Positions 11,929 to 31,382 of a stretch of DNA of 40,283 nucleotides are shown piece after piece. Position 1 is the stretch's first letter. Every line of letters begins with the position of its first letter. This DNA is from a virus. The translations under genes were made by a program, and so were the position numbers. The stretch spans positions 1-40,283 of the IMG/VR virus record IMGVR_UViG_3300036832_000938; one strand, given 5' to 3'. The notes under the pieces are model-generated. The model ran no database searches. It was given only the letters and a program-made list of their open reading frames with translations, and was not told the origin of the DNA.

Positions 11929-13971
11929 TTAGGGACTCACTCCGCTCAAATCGATCGGCGGCGGGTTCGCTTCGATCTGCGCCTGCGTCAGGGTCGTCAT
12001 CGCGAAGGAGCGCCAGTTGACGGAGACATACTTGAACTTGCCGCCCGCAATGCCGGGATTGTTCGCGATGCCCGGACCCGTGGTGGTCGGGTAATAATCG
12101 CCGCCGGCCCCGACCAGGAATTTGGCAATCGAGCGGTCATCGGTTCCGCCCGCATTGGTCAGGATCAGGCGCGCCTCGCACAGCGACACAACGCCCCGAA
12201 GATCCGTCGGGTCGAACGGAATGCGCGGGAAGGGGGCATAGAAATGCACCATTTTCCCGCCGCCCGGAACGAACGAGATCGAGCCATCGGGCTCGGTGCG
12301 CGGCGTGAATTCCCCGTAATCGGTCGAGAAGTCCTCGGCGTAATAGCCGGTGGTCGGCGCACTGCTGAGCACACCCTGCGTCCAGACGCCGGTCGAAGCC
12401 CGCAGCCACCAGAACTGGCAGACACGCACGTTGATGCGCGAATTGGTCGCGGGGTTGCCGCCCGCGTCAATGTAGCCGTCGCCCCAAAACTCGATCGCCG
12501 TGTTCGTACCGGGAGTATTGCCGTCGCCGATGAACGGCCCGCTGTAGAAATCCCAGTCGGACGGCACGCCGTGCGGATGGCCCTCATTCAGGCCGGTCAT
12601 GTCGTTGTAGATCTGGTCGGCGACCGAGGTCGTACCGCCGCCGGCCGGGCCCGGAGGTCCTTGCGGCCCAGCGGGTCCAACGGGACCTTGCGGGCCTGCT
12701 GGTCCGGTCGGCCCGGCAGGTCCCTGCGTTCCAGTCGCGCCTTTCGCGCCGGCGGGTCCGGTAAGTCCGGTCGGTCCCGCAGGTCCTGCCGCGCCGGTCG
12801 CTCCGGTAGTGCCCTGCGGTCCCGTCGCGCCAGTCACGCCGATCGGTCCTTGCGAACCTGTCGCGCCGGTATCGCCTTTGAGTCCCTGGGGTCCGGTGGC
12901 GCCGGCCAGCCCGATCGGTCCCGTGGAACCAGCGGTTCCGGTCAGACCTTGCGGTCCAGTGGCTCCCGTCGCACCCGTCGGTCCGGTCGGTCCTGCGGGA
13001 CCTGCGGGTCCGGTCGGCCCTTGGGGTCCAGCGGGTCCAGTCCCTGATCCGCCTGAACCGTCCGCGCCGGGAGGGCCTTGCGGGCCCGTCGCTCCAGTTG
13101 GTCCTGCGGGTCCCGTCGCGCCAGTGGCTCCCGCGGGTCCCGTCGCGCCCGTCAGACCCGTGTCGCCTTTTGCTCCTTGTGAACCCGTGGCACCAGTCGC
13201 CCCGGTCGCTCCGGCTGACCCCGTAGCGCCTGGGTCTCCCTTCGGACCTTGCGCGCCCGTTGCGCCAGTTGCACCAGTCGCACCTGTCAGCCCTTGCGGA
13301 CCTGTTACGCCAGCGGGTCCCTGCGGTCCCGTAGCACCTGTTGCACCAGCAGACCCAGCCGCTCCTTGCAACCCTTGCGGCCCGGTCGGTCCGGCGGGTC
13401 CGGGAGGGCCTTGCGGTCCGGGACCGCCGCCGCTGCCGCCACTTCCGCCGCCCGAAAGGAAGTACCAGGCGAGGTGCCAGTCGTCCGACTTCAACGGCAC
13501 GGCGTAGGTGATGGTGGAGCCGCTGAGAGTGGCATCCGTCAGGCTCTGCTCGACGCCGTTCAGGTACAGCGTGAGGGAGGTAGCCGGATTCGGCGTAGAA
13601 CTTAAAGTAAAGGTTTTATTGGTGCCGTCCAGCGTCCCGGCCGGGACTTCGCGCACCGGAACCGGCGCTCCCGGCACACTCGGCGTCTTCGGCTCCCACT
13701 GGCCGTCGGCGTACACCCAGGTCAGCACCTGGCCGTCAGACGGCGCGGTCGCGGACACATGCCGCCCTTCGATCCCGATCACCGTCTGGCTGGTATTGGT
13801 GCCGGCCAGATCGCCGCCAGCGGTAAAGTCGCCGCCTCCGCCGCCGCCCTGGCTGTTATTGATGACCTGCTGCGCGGTGTTCAGCCACAGGCGCGCCTGG
13901 TCGGACAAGGCGCCGCCGTTCACCGTCCACGGGAAGTTGGACTGATACGGCCAGACAAGAGATTTCGGCAT
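11929..13971 (-). CDS. Collagen-like tail fibre, 680 aa
   Basis: An N-terminal attachment region (about 1-180) contains a [15 protein letters not shown] beta segment common in phage baseplate or fibre proteins. It ends in a Gly/Ser hinge. Residues about 183-445 are near-perfect Gly-X-Y collagen repeats rich in GPQ, GPA, GAT and GPT. The C-terminal 235 residues form a globular, beta-rich and aromatic domain that probably recognises the host. Collagen repeats in phage fibres form trimeric shafts. The repeats make the locus prone to length change. On the opposite strand the same repeat creates long spurious ORFs. Confidence 0.85.
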
Positions 13972-18645: not shown

Positions 18646-19581
18646 TTACTTCCGTTTGGCGAGACGGCGCTCGACTTCCTCCCATTGCGCGAAGGATTTC
18701 GCACCGTGGTCGGGTTTAGATAGGGCCGATTGGGAACTGCCAGTGGTGCTGAGTTTCGCCGGCACTTTGACCGGCGCAGGCGCTTCCGCTTCCGGTTCCG
18801 CTGCGGCAGCGTGGCCGTTTGAAGCGAGCGAGGCCATCAGCTTGCCCATTTCGAAAATCTGTATGTCGCGCGGCAACTGCGCAATGCGCTCGGCTGCCTT
18901 CTTGTCGTCGATCAACGCCTGGCCAAGCGCCGGGCCATGATGCAAGACTACATCGACCATCAGAGGCGACATCGGGGTCTGCGCGATCTCGGCATCGTAG
19001 TCAGGATGTTCCTTGATATGGTCGCCGAGCTGCTTTCCGTAGTCGTCTAGGATGCGCTGCTGCGCGGCTTTGGCCTGCTGCTCCTGCTGCTTGCGCTCAT
19101 ATTGGTTCTCTATCCATTTACGCTGCGCCTCATCGTATTTGGCGACCTCGTTCTCATACTCATCGAGCGTCCCTGGAAAGGTCGAGAGCTTGGGGCGCAC
19201 CGGCGGCTTATCCTCTGCCGGTGCTGGCTGCTGCGCCGCGGGAGCCGCCGCCTCGGCTCCACTGGCGGGTGCTGCTTGGCTGGCGGGCTGTTGCTGTTGC
19301 AGCGTCCGCCGTTCGCGACGCAACTCGGTAACTTCTTTAAGCAGCTTGGCGCGCTCGTCGGCGAGTGAGAGCTTCGGCTTCGCAGGCGCCTTTGGCTCCG
19401 ACTGCTCTTCGCCCGGTGCCGCTTCTGCCGCTGGTTCGCTAGCGGTTTCGCTAGCGGTTTCGGCGGGGTGTTCTTCTACTGCCTCTGCCGGCTTCGCTTC
19501 TGTAGGTGCGTTGTATTTGCCGCCGCCGGCTTCGAACTCGGCGAACGTGGTCGGTGCGGCGGGCGTGGGTGTTTCTGCCAT
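18646..19581 (-). CDS. Scaffolding protein, P22 gp8-like in position and composition, 311 aa
   Basis: The protein is Ala/Pro/Glu-rich and mostly helical. The acidic disordered N-terminus contains a duplicated ETAS pair near residue 40. A Leu/Arg/Gln coiled coil (about 75-100) follows, and the C-terminal tail is basic (EEVERRLAKRK), like the coat-binding end of P22 scaffold. It precedes the coat gene, as in P22. Its ATG follows directly after the stop of the 67-residue gene. No protease motif is seen, so release rather than proteolysis of scaffold is likely. Confidence 0.7.
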   Translation of the reverse strand: MAETPTPAAPTTFAEFEAGGGKYNAPTEAKPAEAVEEHPAETASETASEPAAEAAPGEEQSEPKAPAKPKLSLADERAKLLKEVTELRRERRTLQQQQPASQAAPASGAEAAAPAAQQPAPAEDKPPVRPKLSTFPGTLDEYENEVAKYDEAQRKWIENQYERKQQEQQAKAAQQRILDDYGKQLGDHIKEHPDYDAEIAQTPMSPLMVDVVLHHGPALGQALIDDKKAAERIAQLPRDIQIFEMGKLMASLASNGHAAAAEPEAEAPAPVKVPAKLSTTGSSQSALSKPDHGAKSFAQWEEVERRLAKRK

Positions 19582-19785
19582 CTACTGCGGGTGCTCCTTC
19601 AATGTCTCGAGGGCATGTCCGCAAAGCCCTTGGACCACGCTATGCGCGGCTTCCCGCCAGCCCTCCTGCATGCGTGGCGGCAGCTCCTCCCAGGCCGGCA
19701 CAGGCAGCGGCTGCGCTTCCGCGCGGACCACCTGTGCGTAGGCTTCGTACGCAGCTTCGGCGATCGTATTCCAGTTAGCGGGCAT
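19582..19785 (-). CDS. Small phage protein with Trp/Ala pattern, 67 aa
   Basis: The pattern AYEAYAQVVRAEA, then WEELPPRMQEGWREAAHSV, recurs in small phage and prophage proteins of unknown role. No SD is evident before the ATG. The last core of repeat array 1 lies about 20 bases upstream, so this gene is the first coding region after the array in the direction of transcription. It abuts the scaffold gene. Confidence 0.6.
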   Translation of the reverse strand: MPANWNTIAEAAYEAYAQVVRAEAQPLPVPAWEELPPRMQEGWREAAHSVVQGLCGHALETLKEHPQ

Positions 19786-19804
19786 GGGATCACTGCGGGA
19801 TATT

Positions 19805-20250
19805 TACTCTGCTTTGCGGCGCGGTGCGTCACGAAACGGCGCGCCTCGGCACGATGCGTAACGTGAATAGCGGAAATAATATGGCTCTGCTCTGCGTTAC
19901 GTTACGGGGCGCTACGGCACGCAACGTTACGTTACGATGCGTGATAAAACTTGCTCTGCTCTGCGCTACGTAACGCTGCAAAACGACACGCTACGACGCG
20001 ACACGGAACGCGACGATACTGGGCGCGACGGGACAACAAATCCTCAAGAACTCTGCTCTGCGTGACGTTGCGGAACGACACAGTGCGCTACGCAACTGCG
20101 CGACACGCTCAATAATATTGCTCGGCTCTGCACCGCGCCGCGCCACGATACGATGCGCGACAATACGCAACGTGACGATAAACCATCTGCTCTGCTTTTG
20201 CGGCACGTTGCGATACGTCACAGGCACGCCACATAACGTTACGTCACGGC
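19805..20250 (-). repeat. Array 1 of CTCTG-core / CGNNA pentamer repeats (6 units)
   Basis: Six units are visible on the plus strand. Each has a core close to CTCTGCTCTG followed by a run of 5-base words of the form CGNNA or CGNNG. Core starts are near 19807, 19885, 19954, 20051, 20121 and 20187. The unit at 19885 has ten consecutive CG-starting pentamers from 19895 to 19944. The CG dinucleotide thus recurs every 5 bp, half a helical turn. On the transcribed minus strand it reads as TNNCG runs ending in CAGAG cores. No gene is supported here. The block lies between the 164-residue gene and the 67-residue gene of the late region. Confidence 0.9.
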
Positions 20251-20255
20251 AAGAC

Positions 20256-20750
20256 TTACGTGATCATCTGCCGGATGGCGTCCATGGTATCCACGATGGC
20301 GCGTTGGTGCGCGGTCTCATGGGTAATGATGGGCGCAATTTGCTTCAATATCTTCGGCTGCAGCACACTCGCGACGACGCCCGTGATAGCGAGCGAGACA
20401 TCGTAGCGCTGCCGTTCATTCAGACTGAGGGACTCGTAATTCTGGACGCACTGCGTCAGGTCATTAAATTCGCGACGCGCTTTGCGCCGCACAAACTGTA
20501 CGCTTTTCTCTCCAACCCGGATCACGCCCACATCGTCCAGCCGGCGCAGCGATAACTCGACACACTCAAATTTGCGCCCGTGCTCCTGAATCAGCCGGCG
20601 GCGCGCGGTACGCAGCGAGCTTTTGGCTTTCGTGCGCACATCGGCTCCAATGTGGTGGGAGATCACGCTGTAGGGAAGCGACTCTCCGGTCTGCAGTCCC
20701 ATCAGGAGTTCAATGCACTGCTGCGTTTCGGGATTGGACTGAAATTTCAT
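20256..20750 (-). CDS. Protein between the repeat arrays, possible winged-helix DNA-binding, 164 aa
   Basis: The segment LPYSVISHHIGADVRTKAKSSLRTARRRLIQEHG at about residues 23-56 looks like a helix-turn-helix or winged-helix reader with a basic recognition helix. A beta-hairpin-like part (FECVELSLRRLDDVGVIRVG) follows, and the C-terminal half is helical. I know no named family. The gene is flanked on both sides by the pentamer arrays, and a core copy lies directly against its ATG (20752 onward), serving in place of a normal SD. It is the best candidate to bind the arrays, which is inference. Confidence 0.65.
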   Translation of the reverse strand: MKFQSNPETQQCIELLMGLQTGESLPYSVISHHIGADVRTKAKSSLRTARRRLIQEHGRKFECVELSLRRLDDVGVIRVGEKSVQFVRRKARREFNDLTQCVQNYESLSLNERQRYDVSLAITGVVASVLQPKILKQIAPIITHETAHQRAIVDTMDAIRQMIT

Positions 20751-20751
20751 G

Positions 20752-21500
20752 CTCTGCTCTGCTTTGCGTTACGTAACGGCACAAAACACCGCGCTACAGG
20801 ACGTTGAGGTACAACGCGCCACAGCACTTGCACGCAACGGCACGCGGCGACACGGGAAACTCTTCATACATGCTCTGCTCTACGGAACGCTGCGGAACGC
20901 TACGCTACGCAACGTAACGCTACGAAAATACCTGCTCTGCTCTACGGCACGATACGAAACGAAGCGCGACGTCACGCGACGTAGCGTCACCTTAAAAGCT
21001 CTGCCCTGCGGTACGCCACGATGCATAACGCAACGCCGCAGCACGCTACGGGGCGATACCCAAGGGAAATATCTGCTCTGCTCGGCGTGACGATACGGAA
21101 CGGAACGTTGCGAAACGTTACGACACGTGACGCGACGAAAAATACCTGCTCTGCTCTGCGGCACGCAACGAGACACGACGATACGGAACGCTTCGCTACG
21201 GTACGCCAACTCTTCATACTTGCTCTGCTCTGCGTGACGCTACGTAACGCTGCGGAACAATGCGGAACGCCACAGTACGAAAATACCTGCCCTGCTTTAC
21301 GGTACAGTACGTTACGCCGCACTGCGCCACGCGACGCTACGGGAGAAAATACTTGCTCTGCTCTGCGTTACGACACAGGACGACACGCCGCTGTACGAGA
21401 CGGAACGGTACGTAAAATATCTGCTCTGCTCTACGAGGCGGTACATCACGCGACATAACGGAACGAAACGCGACGTAACGGAACGCCACATTGCGTTAAC
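20752..21500 (-). repeat. Array 2 of CTCTG-core / CGNNA pentamer repeats (10 units)
   Basis: Cores start at 20752, 20873, 20935, 20999, 21076, 21149, 21223, 21290, 21356 and 21424, giving units of about 62-77 bp except the first (121 bp). Each core is followed by about nine CG-phased pentamers; for example 20883-20927 is nine in a row. Two linker types precede cores: AAAATACCTG (several units) and AACTCTTCATAC (two units about 350 bp apart). The pentamer words differ from unit to unit while the phase and core are kept. No convincing coding sequence is present on either strand. Confidence 0.9.
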
Positions 21501-21503
21501 ATC

Positions 21504-22112
21504 CTAAGCCGCCAACCGCTTTTCAATGTCCTTCAGACTGAGTGGCTTCCAGACCACATTGACCACCCGATACCGTCCCTTGGTTCCACCATTCGCCGGC
21601 CGAAACCGTCCGACTCCGACCTGCAGTCCCGCTTCCACCAAGAATTCGGTGAGTACCTCCTTGGTAATCAATTCATCGAACAGCGCGAAGTCCGCAGTCC
21701 CGCGCCAGGCTTTGACCATCGGATAGCAGCGCAAGACCCGTGTATGGTTGCCGCGGGCGCCGCCCTGCGCATCGCAGTGAATCCACTCACCCAATATCGA
21801 CTCATCCGTCAGGCCCGTATCCAGGTCGCTCAAGGGCGAGATGCCGGAAATAATGTGCTGCGTCCAGGTGGATGCCCCTTTACCGGGAATCTTTTTTTTT
21901 GACAGCTTGGCAGCACCCTCGAGTGACTTCTTGATCGCCATGCCGGGCACGATGAGATGCTTCTTTTCGTTCAGATGAACCCGGTTCTTCCAGGTCCGCG
22001 CCTCGTAGGCTTCTGCCAACTCCTTTTCAATCTTCGGCGTATTGTGGAATCTCGATTGAGAGTAAGGACTCAATGAAGCTAACTCCACTTCAACGATTGT
22101 GGCTCGTTCCAT
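21504..22112 (-). CDS. Conserved phage protein of unknown function, 202 aa
   Basis: Its parts in order are a short N-terminal strand (TIVEVELASLSPYSQSR), an EKELAEAYEARTWK helix, an IVPGMAIKKSLEGAAK segment, GKGASTWTQHI, an RVLRCYPMVKAWRG strand, and VGVGRFRPANGG-x-GRY. I recognise this layout from unnamed proteins of many tailed phages but know no activity. It lies upstream of array 2. A 140-base AT-rich leader with direct repeats precedes it. No strong SD is visible. Confidence 0.7.
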   Translation of the reverse strand: MERATIVEVELASLSPYSQSRFHNTPKIEKELAEAYEARTWKNRVHLNEKKHLIVPGMAIKKSLEGAAKLSKKKIPGKGASTWTQHIISGISPLSDLDTGLTDESILGEWIHCDAQGGARGNHTRVLRCYPMVKAWRGTADFALFDELITKEVLTEFLVEAGLQVGVGRFRPANGGTKGRYRVVNVVWKPLSLKDIEKRLAA

Positions 22113-22253
22113 GTATCTTTTAGACCGCCCCTATTTTTCTAGAACGGTATCAATTTACACCCAAACGTTTTCGCCCACAACTGTTTTTTGAGAGCAGGTA
22201 TGTTTTCCCCTATAACTATTTTTACGAGGGTATCGTTTAACGTGTGTAACGTT
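22113..22253 (-). promoter_or_regulatory. AT-rich control region with three degenerate direct repeats
   Basis: Three related stretches of about 27 bases begin at 22131, 22181 and 22216. Each has CTATTTTT or CTGTTTTTT, then an AGA/CGA-rich step, then GGTAT and a T-rich end. The region is much richer in A/T than its neighbours. The middle copy contains AGAGCAGGTAT, the reverse complement of the linker/core junction found in the repeat arrays. It may hold a promoter or operators for the gene at 21504-22112. No clear -35/-10 pair could be fixed. Confidence 0.45.
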
Positions 22254-22391
22254 TCAATGCAGCCATAACGCAGCGGTCAGAAAGGCCAACCCCAACCAAC
22301 CGAACTGCAGCCGCAGGTGCGCGATGCCGAGGCCCGCCAGCACGAACAGCACGAAGGCAAAAGCCAGCAGGATCAGATGTACGGTCGTCAC
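22254..22391 (-). CDS. Mini membrane protein, 45 aa, two hydrophobic helices
   Basis: The GTG start lies in a GTGA overlap with the stop of the 173-residue gene. The product begins VTTVHLILLAF, has two hydrophobic stretches (about 4-22 and 28-44) and ends ALWLH. Very short membrane proteins with a VHL start and a second helix of this kind are common in phage structural modules. The function is unknown; holin-like or lysis-timing roles are possible. Confidence 0.65.
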   Translation of the reverse strand: MTTVHLILLAFAFVLFVLAGLGIAHLRLQFGWLGLAFLTAALWLH

Positions 22392-22909
22392 TCTTCGGCG
22401 TCCTCGGGTTTCGCGCCGAGCTTCGACACTTTGCCGACGCGCGCCGCGGCTGAGAAATCGACGTTCTGCACGTCCTGCGTTCCCTGACAGTAGCCGAGGA
22501 AGGCCCGCACGTCGGATGTGCCGTCGTCATGCACTGCGATCACCAGCGCAGCGACGGGCGCGGCGTTCGGGTCCGCGGGCTGAAACTGCACGATGTCGCC
22601 TAAATTCACAGGAGTGGTTGCCATAGTAGTTGGTTCCTTTCGTTTCTTCGGTTGTTGATCCTTTGCCTTCAAGTCATGGGCCAATGCTTTGGTTTGCGCA
22701 TGTAAGCTTTCCACGAGCTCTTCGAGGTCCGCCACCTCGCTCGTAAGCCGCGCGTTCTTTTCCTGCAGCGTCGCGTTCTCCTCCCACAGCACCGTCATCG
22801 CCGCTTTGTGTGTGGCAGGGATGGCCTCTATCATCCCGTGCTCGATCGGCGCGGGCTTATTCTGCGGCTTCGGCGCCTGTATCGCCTTGTTCTTCGCTTT
22901 GGTTGCCAT
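22388..22909 (-). CDS. Two-part phage protein: coiled coil plus small C-terminal domain, 173 aa
   Basis: Residues 1-30 are Lys/Pro-rich. Residues 35-85 form a coiled coil (ENATLQEKNARLTSEVADLEE). From residue 96 a compact domain starts (MATTPVNLGDIVQFQP, ALVIAVHDDG, VRAFLGY) that looks like a free-standing small phage protein. An internal ATG at 22624 is preceded by AAAGGAA at good spacing, so a 77-residue short form is probably made as well. It overlaps the portal gene by 53 bases. Confidence 0.65.
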   Translation of the reverse strand: MATKAKNKAIQAPKPQNKPAPIEHGMIEAIPATHKAAMTVLWEENATLQEKNARLTSEVADLEELVESLHAQTKALAHDLKAKDQQPKKRKEPTTMATTPVNLGDIVQFQPADPNAAPVAALVIAVHDDGTSDVRAFLGYCQGTQDVQNVDFSAAARVGKVSKLGAKPEDAEE

Positions 22910-30403: not shown

Positions 30404-31382
30404 GTGATTTCTCCTTGGGGTTTTTCATCACAGTTTCCGGCCGTTTGCGCTCGGGCTTGCCGCGGCAGCGCGGGCAAGGAACAAACTGCCGCTCGCGCGG
30501 TAAGTCGAGCCAGGCGCTGGTGGGCTGGCCATCGAACTCGGGGTTCAAAATTTCACCGGATGCGCCGCAGTCCGGGCACACGTCTCCTCGGGCACCTGGA
30601 GCGCGGGCCCCATTCGCCGTAGCGAAATACGCCGCCACGGTCTTGGGCCATAGCCCCGCCCCTCGCTGGTTTTCCCGATACGTCGAGCGCAGCGCATGGC
30701 AGAGCTCCGCATCGGTGACATCGGGTTTGCGCGCCAGCGCTTCGCGGACGATGCGCTGCACCATTTCGCCGTCCGTTCCGGGAAACGTCTGCCGGATTAG
30801 GCGCTCGGCTTTCGGGAAGCGTTCGGGTTCTTGCGGCGCCGCGGCGGCGACGGCCTCCGGTTCGACGACGGGCGCCTCTACGATCGTCACGTTAGCCGCA
30901 GCCGCAGTTCTACTCTGACTTCTGACTTCTGACTTCTGACTTCTGACGCGCGCGTCAGAGGGTTGCTTGGGGTTTGCTTCCGCTTTGCTTGGCGTTTGCT
31001 TGGGTTTTGCTTGCGAACCGCCTTTGCTTCCAGCATCCGCACGCTTCTCGCTCAGGTCCGTAGCACGCGCCATGCGGCGACAGTAAATGATTGAATCGTC
31101 AGTCTTTGAGTAGGTTCCGGCCTCGTCCATTTCCGCCCAGGCCGCATTCACGCGGGCCTCGGAAATTTGCAGCGCGTTTGCTAGCTGTTTGCTTGTCATT
31201 TGCCGGCCACTTGCCGTCACTAAATAGCCGCGCCGGCTCGAATCGTGCATCAAAAACAGCATGAAAATCCAGACCGCGCGCGCTTCAAACGAGAGCACCT
31301 GCACACAGGGATCTTTCATAAAATCCCCTGGGAAAAATTTGATGAACGGTCCTTCGCGCTCTTCTGACTCCATCCTGCTCAC
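30384..31382 (-). CDS. Replication initiator-like protein with winged-helix N-terminus and zinc ribbon, 332 aa
   Basis: Residues 12-110 (FIKFFPGDFMKDPCVQVLSFEARAVWIFML, then MTSKQLANALQ) fit the DUF1376 or phage replisome-organiser winged-helix type. A Lys/Gln/Ser-rich linker at 120-165 contains an RSQKSEV repeat made by 7-base tandem DNA repeats. A helical domain follows, then CPDCG near residue 267 and CPRCRG near 305, a four-Cys zinc ribbon. Such proteins melt or mark the origin and recruit host helicase. No helicase or polymerase is nearby, so host replication proteins would be needed. Confidence 0.65.
   Translation of the reverse strand: MSRMESEEREGPFIKFFPGDFMKDPCVQVLSFEARAVWIFMLFLMHDSSRRGYLVTASGRQMTSKQLANALQISEARVNAAWAEMDEAGTYSKTDDSIIYCRRMARATDLSEKRADAGSKGGSQAKPKQTPSKAEANPKQPSDARVRSQKSEVRSQSRTAAAANVTIVEAPVVEPEAVAAAAPQEPERFPKAERLIRQTFPGTDGEMVQRIVREALARKPDVTDAELCHALRSTYRENQRGAGLWPKTVAAYFATANGARAPGARGDVCPDCGASGEILNPEFDGQPTSAWLDLPRERQFVPCPRCRGKPERKRPETVMKNPKEKSHAATSA
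30914..30947. repeat. 7-bp tandem repeat inside the replication gene
   Basis: TCTGACT is repeated 4.9 times in 34 bases. As 7 is not a multiple of 3, gain or loss of one unit would shift the frame of the gene at 30384-31382 and remove its helical and zinc-ribbon parts. Confidence 0.9.

What the first reader, a model, noticed from the sequence alone, without database searches (positions are those of the whole stretch)
19805..21500. Sixteen-unit array of phased degenerate pentamers in the late operon
Seen directly: two blocks (6 and 10 units) with a CTCTG-CTCTG core followed by runs of CGNNA/CGNNG words, so CG recurs every 5 bp (two per helical turn). Core and phase are conserved while the NN letters differ in nearly every word. 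This differs from CRISPR, iterons with fixed sequence, microsatellites and coding repeats. Because 5 and 3 are coprime, any frame would give the same Arg-x-Val style pattern. Selection therefore seems to act on DNA shape, CpG phase or RNA structure, not on protein or exact sequence. Candidate roles are a DNA-bending or packaging element, a binding scaffold for a protein reading CG every half turn, a transcript-level (UNNCG)n structure, or a recombination hotspot. I know of no described element with this form.
Basis: seen in the sequence. Interest (0 to 1): 0.92.

Follow-up and report, generated by a model that had tools for sequence, protein, structure and literature searches.

The report
Phage VIPR guide-RNA array aimed at terminases
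The strange five-letter repeats are guide RNA genes of a VIPR system, a recently reported phage-encoded relative of CRISPR, and the variable letters of at least two of the sixteen guides spell out the DNA-packaging (terminase) gene of competing phages.

Summary
Two blocks (6 and 10 units) carry CG every 5 bp; no shuffled sequence of 2,000 matched this. On the coding (minus) strand each unit is about 8-15 words of CGY-NN followed by a fixed AGCAGAGC end. The CGY positions are conserved; the NN positions carry 0.02-0.05 bits, i.e. are random. The interpretation (DNA shape, packaging, undescribed element) is not right. Next to the array lies a 202-aa protein with a Cas7/Csm3-type RAMP fold. Its family profile matches the solved 'SUSP1 Vipr protein' at 1e-35. 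This is a VIPR locus (bioRxiv 2026, PMC13142463): a Vipr protein, an accessory DNA-binding protein (the 164-aa gene) and vrRNAs, whose NN letters pair with target DNA, skipping one base. Read by that rule, one guide matches 12 places in all of IMG/VR, all 12 in terminase large-subunit genes, in frame, with skipped bases at wobble positions. A second guide fits one IMG/VR place once one base is relaxed, again a terminase. None of 2,250 order-permuted guides, and no 0-, 2- or 3-base skip, gave such matches. Close relatives lack the whole locus: it is an inserted cassette. A new member of a just-described kind; the predicted targets are the new result.

The parts
21504..22112 (-). Vipr protein (RAMP / Cas7-like), 202 aa
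   Evidence: Profile of 59 homologues (A1) matches PDB 36pp_D 'SUSP1 Vipr protein' E=1.1e-35; AF2 pLDDT 94; Csm3 / type VII Cas7 chains at Z about 13; PHROG_4652
20256..20750 (-). vap-like accessory protein, 164 aa, predicted winged-helix-like DNA-binding N-terminus
   Evidence: Homologues beside vipr in about 29 other array loci; AF2 pLDDT 93; only weak Foldseek matches to transcription regulators, best E=0.023
20751..21500 (-). vrRNA array, block of 10 units between vipr and vap
19805..20255 (-). vrRNA array, block of 6 units downstream of vap
21423..21495 (-). vrRNA unit 1: 13 CGY-NN words + AGCAGAGC end
21355..21412 (-). vrRNA unit 2: 10 words + handle
21289..21341 (-). vrRNA unit 3: 9 words + handle
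21222..21279 (-). vrRNA unit 4: 10 words + handle
21148..21205 (-). vrRNA unit 5: 10 words + handle
21075..21137 (-). vrRNA unit 6: 11 words + handle
20998..21065 (-). vrRNA unit 7: 12 words + handle
20934..20991 (-). vrRNA unit 8: NN = GA TA CG GA CG TT TT AT GC (AG); predicted target: terminase large subunit, [DE]YRERL[FL]MA just before Walker A
   Evidence: 12 of 12 exact IMG/VR matches lie in terminase genes in frame; 17/18 in portal-selected relatives
20872..20924 (-). vrRNA unit 9: 9 words + handle
20756..20828 (-). vrRNA unit 10: 13 words + handle, with a phase slip upstream; tentative target: N-terminus of another terminase (L260)
   Evidence: 19/24, E=0.03
20189..20255 (-). vrRNA unit 11: words broken by 1-nt slips + handle (possibly decayed)
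20120..20177 (-). vrRNA unit 12: 10 words + handle
20050..20107 (-). vrRNA unit 13: NN = GT GC TG AG AC GT TC AA CA (AG); predicted target: opposite strand of terminase, C-F/Y-E-T-V-L-H-A-T
   Evidence: 17/18 in L262 and L276; one relaxed-pattern match in all IMG/VR, that same terminase
19953..20035 (-). vrRNA unit 14: 15 words + handle
19884..19951 (-). vrRNA unit 15: up to 12 words + handle
19806..19863 (-). vrRNA unit 16: 10 words + handle
19582..22387 (.). extent of the VIPR cassette, between the scaffold gene (18646-19581) and a 173-aa gene (22388-22909); absent from relatives

Best explanation
The feature is the vrRNA array of a phage VIPR system. The blocks are transcribed on the minus strand as guide RNAs. 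Copies of the 202-aa Vipr protein would coat each guide, one subunit per pentamer, holding the constant CGY letters and exposing the NN letters. The NN letters pair with double-stranded DNA, with one unpaired target base between successive NN pairs. The bound complex would repress the target gene. In this phage at least two guides, tentatively three, are aimed at terminase large-subunit genes of other phages, so the likely effect is to stop competitors packaging their DNA. The 164-aa protein is probably the accessory (vap) that strengthens repression. Shown here: sequence pattern, homology and fold of Vipr, gene neighbourhood, absence from relatives, target matches. Inferred from the preprint on other VIPRs: transcription, RNP formation, repression, vap role.
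For: Period-5 array with constant CGY and random NN. PHROG_4652/Vipr homologues beside arrays in 80 array-selected loci including the window. In the 6 isolated phages examined after a protein-only search, 6 of 6 have a pentamer array beside the gene. Array strand equals vipr strand in all orientable loci (GGY 24:0, GCA 36:0). Profile hit to PDB 36pp 'SUSP1 Vipr protein' E=1.1e-35; RAMP fold. Published VIPR architecture and 1-nt-skip rule. Targets: unit 8, 12/12 exact IMG/VR matches in terminase, in frame, skip = wobble, against 2 matches, neither in a terminase, in 257 Gb of bacterial genomes; unit 13, 17/18 in terminases of two relatives and one relaxed match in IMG/VR. In 328 kb of relatives not chosen by guide pattern, 2 of 15 guides reach E<0.002 with 1-nt skip, none with 0, 2 or 3 nt, and 0 of 2,250 order-permuted guides.
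Against: The constant word is CGY (sometimes TGY), not the GGY of the characterised type II; the preprint says only 'or a related consensus'. The window's Vipr alone matches 36pp only at E=0.04; the link needs the family profile. No stable 3' hairpin or pseudoknot was found in the units folded, unlike the SUSP1 tail. Thirteen of 16 guides have no target found. No expression data. The VIPR report is a preprint from one group.
Confidence: 0.93

Rival explanations
1. A DNA-level element: phased CG steps bend DNA, mark packaging or recruit a protein that reads CG every half turn.
For: Strict 5-bp phasing; location among head genes.
Against: Arrays with quite different constant words (GGY, GCA, NNNGG) sit beside the same protein family in unrelated phages, early or late regions; strand follows the vipr gene; close head-gene relatives lack it; NN letters match terminase genes.
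Confidence: 0.03
2. An RNA structural element, such as an attenuator or protein scaffold, in which NN letters are only spacers (TRAP-like ring binding).
For: 5-nt spacing of constant words resembles repeated-triplet RNA binding; a protein reading the constant word is part of the VIPR model too.
Against: Pentamer runs fold no better than shuffles (z +0.84, -1.84, +0.44, +0.45); spacer letters would not spell in-frame terminase codons.
Confidence: 0.03
3. It is a VIPR array, but the guides regulate the phage's own genes rather than competitors.
For: VIPR in general represses transcription; the array sits in the phage's own late operon.
Against: Own terminase matches unit 8 at 14/18 and unit 13 at 15/18, against 17-18/18 in other phages; no significant match elsewhere in the window.
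Confidence: 0.06

Closest known systems
VIPR type II (Escherichia phage SUSP1; P. fulva prophage), PMC13142463
   Same: Vipr RAMP protein, accessory gene, intergenic arrays of constant-triplet/NN pentamers, 1-nt skip target code, wobble alignment of the skipped base, phage targets
   Different: CGY instead of GGY; 16 units against 4 in SUSP1; AGCAGAGC end without evident pseudoknot; predicted targets are terminases rather than satellite-phage or lysogeny-switch genes
Class 1 CRISPR Cas7/Csm3 (type III, type VII)
   Same: RAMP fold with glycine-rich loop (Z about 13); guide-RNA filament with periodic unpaired bases
   Different: No CRISPR repeats in this locus; pentamer guides; non-contiguous pairing; single small RAMP
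TRAP (trp attenuator) RNA repeats
   Same: RNA triplets at regular short spacing read by an oligomeric protein
   Different: Compared from memory only; spacer letters here carry target information; protein fold is RAMP

Membership tests
VIPR | Vipr protein: small single-RRM RAMP homologue | tested here: met
   Family profile to PDB 36pp E=1.1e-35; Csm3/type VII Cas7 fold, Z 13
VIPR | Intergenic tandem pentamers, constant triplet alternating with hypervariable NN, about 9-16 per vrRNA | tested here: met
   153 pentamers, 1.1-1.8 bits at the triplet, at most 0.05 bits at NN; mostly 9-15 per unit; triplet is CGY, a 'related consensus'
VIPR | Invariable structured 3' tail after the repeats | tested here: inconclusive
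   Conserved AGCAGAGC then A/T-rich stretch in 16 units, but no strong structure in 4 units folded
VIPR | vap accessory gene beside vipr | tested here: met
   164-aa gene with about 29 homologues next to vipr in other loci; wHTH-like model, function not tested
VIPR | Targets recognised with a 1-nt skip | tested here: met
   In silico only: 2 of 15 guides E<0.002 with 1-nt skip, none with 0, 2, 3 nt, 0/2,250 permuted; 12/12 in terminase
VIPR | vrRNA expressed and co-purifying with Vipr | not testable with these tools
   needs small-RNA sequencing and pull-down
CRISPR-Cas | Near-identical direct repeats separated by unique contiguous spacers, with cas genes | tested here: not met
   Only short tandem repeats found; units share the 5-nt pattern, not a repeat; no Pfam Cas hit in the ten window proteins scanned
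CRISPR-Cas | Cas7-like RAMP fold | tested here: met
   shared fold, not membership

The most novel reading that the evidence does not exclude
A CGY-type VIPR in a temperate podovirus carries a 16-guide library whose targets are partly terminase genes, including a conserved stretch just before the ATP-binding loop shared by diverse phages. This would make it a broad 'anti-packaging' weapon, with guide letters placed so that synonymous changes in the target cannot escape, and with mismatches that spare its own terminase.
Probability: 0.7. Interest if true: 0.68.

Novelty: new member of a known kind. Interest (0 to 1): 0.6.

Why it matters
It is an independent sequence-based test of the VIPR decoding rule, in a type with another constant word. 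It names a target the main text of the preprint does not mention (terminase), predicts who this phage competes with, and shows the locus as a removable cassette with an empty site in relatives. It also makes a practical point: period-5 arrays beside PHROG_4652 genes can be found by simple pattern scans, and their guides can be decoded by computer. How the NN letters of a new guide are acquired remains open, and arrays aimed at one gene family are good material for asking.

Tried and rejected
Rfam on the window and on seven related loci: nothing at gathering threshold. Pfam, PADLOC and NCBIfam gave no meaningful hit for the Vipr or the 164-aa protein. Paper searches on pentanucleotide or degenerate repeats in phages found nothing; the PDB profile hit led to the preprint. 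A TRAP-like RNA ring was my first idea and was dropped when the RAMP fold and target matches appeared. Decoding 264 guides from many loci against 2.2 Mb of held DNA showed no preference for any skip length: too little target sequence. Portal search in bacterial genomes found no relative, so the host stays unknown; the coat protein was absent from the two genomes searched. Exact pattern for unit 13 found nothing until one position was relaxed. Unit 6 had no match within 3 mismatches in 18 viral records. My first orientation tally (16) was flawed because GC[AG] also matches GCG, the reverse of CGC; the strict recount is, and CGC-rich arrays cannot be oriented by motif alone.

Full report
OBSERVATION. 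The array is real and as described. CG dinucleotides recur every 5 bp in both blocks far beyond dinucleotide-preserving shuffles (44 against 9.7; 64 against 14.3; 0 of 2,000 shuffles). Sixteen units can be read. On the minus strand, the strand of the flanking genes, each unit is a run of C/T-G-Y-N-N words followed by AGCAGAGC and an A/T-rich stretch. The three constant positions hold 1.11, 1.83 and 1.15 bits; the two N positions hold 0.05 and 0.02 bits, i.e. are essentially random. Two units have 1-nt phase slips.

HOW WIDESPREAD. The constant word differs between phages (CGY, GGY, GCA), and spacers between units are conserved within a phage and different between phages.

THE PARTNER PROTEIN. 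An iterative profile search started from the window's 202-aa protein (PHROG_4652, unknown function) found homologues in 80 loci, the window among them, that had been chosen by DNA pattern only, typically abutting the arrays. Going the other way, a protein-only search of sequenced phages gave Listonella phage phiHSIC, Vibrio phage 1.266.O, Gordonia phage Trine, Felixounavirus members such as wV8, Mycobacterium phage LittleE and Pseudomonas phage LESphi2. All six that I opened have a pentamer array beside the gene. Where the motif lets the strand be told, arrays and gene are on the same strand (24:0 and 36:0). The AlphaFold model (pLDDT 94) is a RAMP: best PDB matches are Csm3 and type VII Cas7 subunits (Z about 13). 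The family profile matches PDB entry 36pp, 'SUSP1 Vipr protein', at 1.1e-35; the single window sequence reaches only 0.04.

WHAT IT IS. [quoted passage not shown]) describes VIPR: a Vipr RAMP, an accessory vap gene, and vrRNAs of 9-16 GGY/NN repeats 'or a related consensus' with a 3' tail. The NN pairs read double-stranded DNA with one skipped base between them, the skipped base usually falls on the codon wobble position, binding represses transcription, and natural targets are competing phages. The window has each genomic element: Vipr (21504-22112), a vap-like DNA-binding-type protein (20256-20750) and two vrRNA blocks.

TARGETS. I decoded the 16 guides with the 1-nt skip. In relatives of this phage found through the portal gene only, unit 8 (20934-20991) matched the terminase large subunit at 17 of 18 letters (18 of 20 with the last, constant NN included) and unit 13 (20050-20107) matched the terminase of another relative at 17 of 18, on the opposite strand. 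In both, skipped bases fall on wobble positions. An exact scan of IMG/VR with unit 8 (18 letters) gave 12 places; all 12 are terminase genes, in frame, reading [DE]YRERL[FL]MA-GNQLGKT, with the skipped base varying between targets. The same pattern gave 2 places in 257 Gb of bacterial genomes, neither in a terminase, which bounds the chance rate. Unit 13 has no exact IMG/VR match; with one base relaxed it has a single match, that same relative's terminase. In 328 kb of relatives not selected by guide pattern, 2 of 15 guides reach E below 0.002 with the 1-nt skip, none with skips of 0, 2 or 3, and 0 of 2,250 guides with permuted NN order. A third guide, unit 10, fits the N-terminus of another terminase (L260, 19 of 24, E=0.03) and is tentative. 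The phage's own terminase is mismatched (14/18 and 15/18).

ORIGIN IN THIS PHAGE. Relatives with 65-82% portal and 79-90% coat identity lack Vipr, vap and array; in L264 the 173-aa gene homologue runs straight into the scaffold gene. The longer stretches fetched for eleven viral records (seven of these relatives and four of the terminase-target phages) also hold no Vipr and no array. The locus is a cassette of about 2.8 kb in a late-gene junction.

LIMITS. Nothing here shows transcription, binding or repression; those steps are taken from the preprint's work on other types. The 3' end shows no clear structure. Thirteen guides have no target found, the host is unknown, and the VIPR type could not be assigned because the supplementary files are not held.

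Noticed in passing
L254 5140-5520 (Mycobacterium phage LittleE): The stretches between pentamer runs look like tRNA T-arm plus acceptor halves (GGTTCGAGTCC...GGCCGGAGC), possibly a tRNA-like tail or processing signal of these vrRNAs; no Rfam match.
   Followed up: partly
L253 3440-4020 and 5025-5430 (Escherichia phage wV8): Repeats annotated 'DR_4' in this Felixounavirus lie within the stretches between NNNGG vrRNA-like runs on both sides of gene 95, the Vipr homologue.
   Followed up: partly
L006 900-1340; L139 6450-7000: GCA-type arrays whose units are separated by strong hairpins (TTAACCCACTATTACTAATGGGTTAA-like), another tail design.
   Followed up: no
L146 and L199: Units meet through a 4-base word (for example TGCC) that shifts the 5-nt phase by one, perhaps the 'staggered' arrays of the preprint.
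   Followed up: no
L170 9780-10206: An A/T-rich period-5 array of TTATG/CTGTG-like words with few word types, unlike vrRNAs; probably a different repeat.
   Followed up: no
window 30914-31013: A perfect 7-bp tandem repeat (TCTGACT, 4.9 copies) followed by an 11/22-bp repeat.
   Followed up: no
window 12686-13160: Repeats of 27-54 bp encoding a collagen-like Gly-X-Y stretch in the 680-aa protein 11929-13971 (minus).
   Followed up: no
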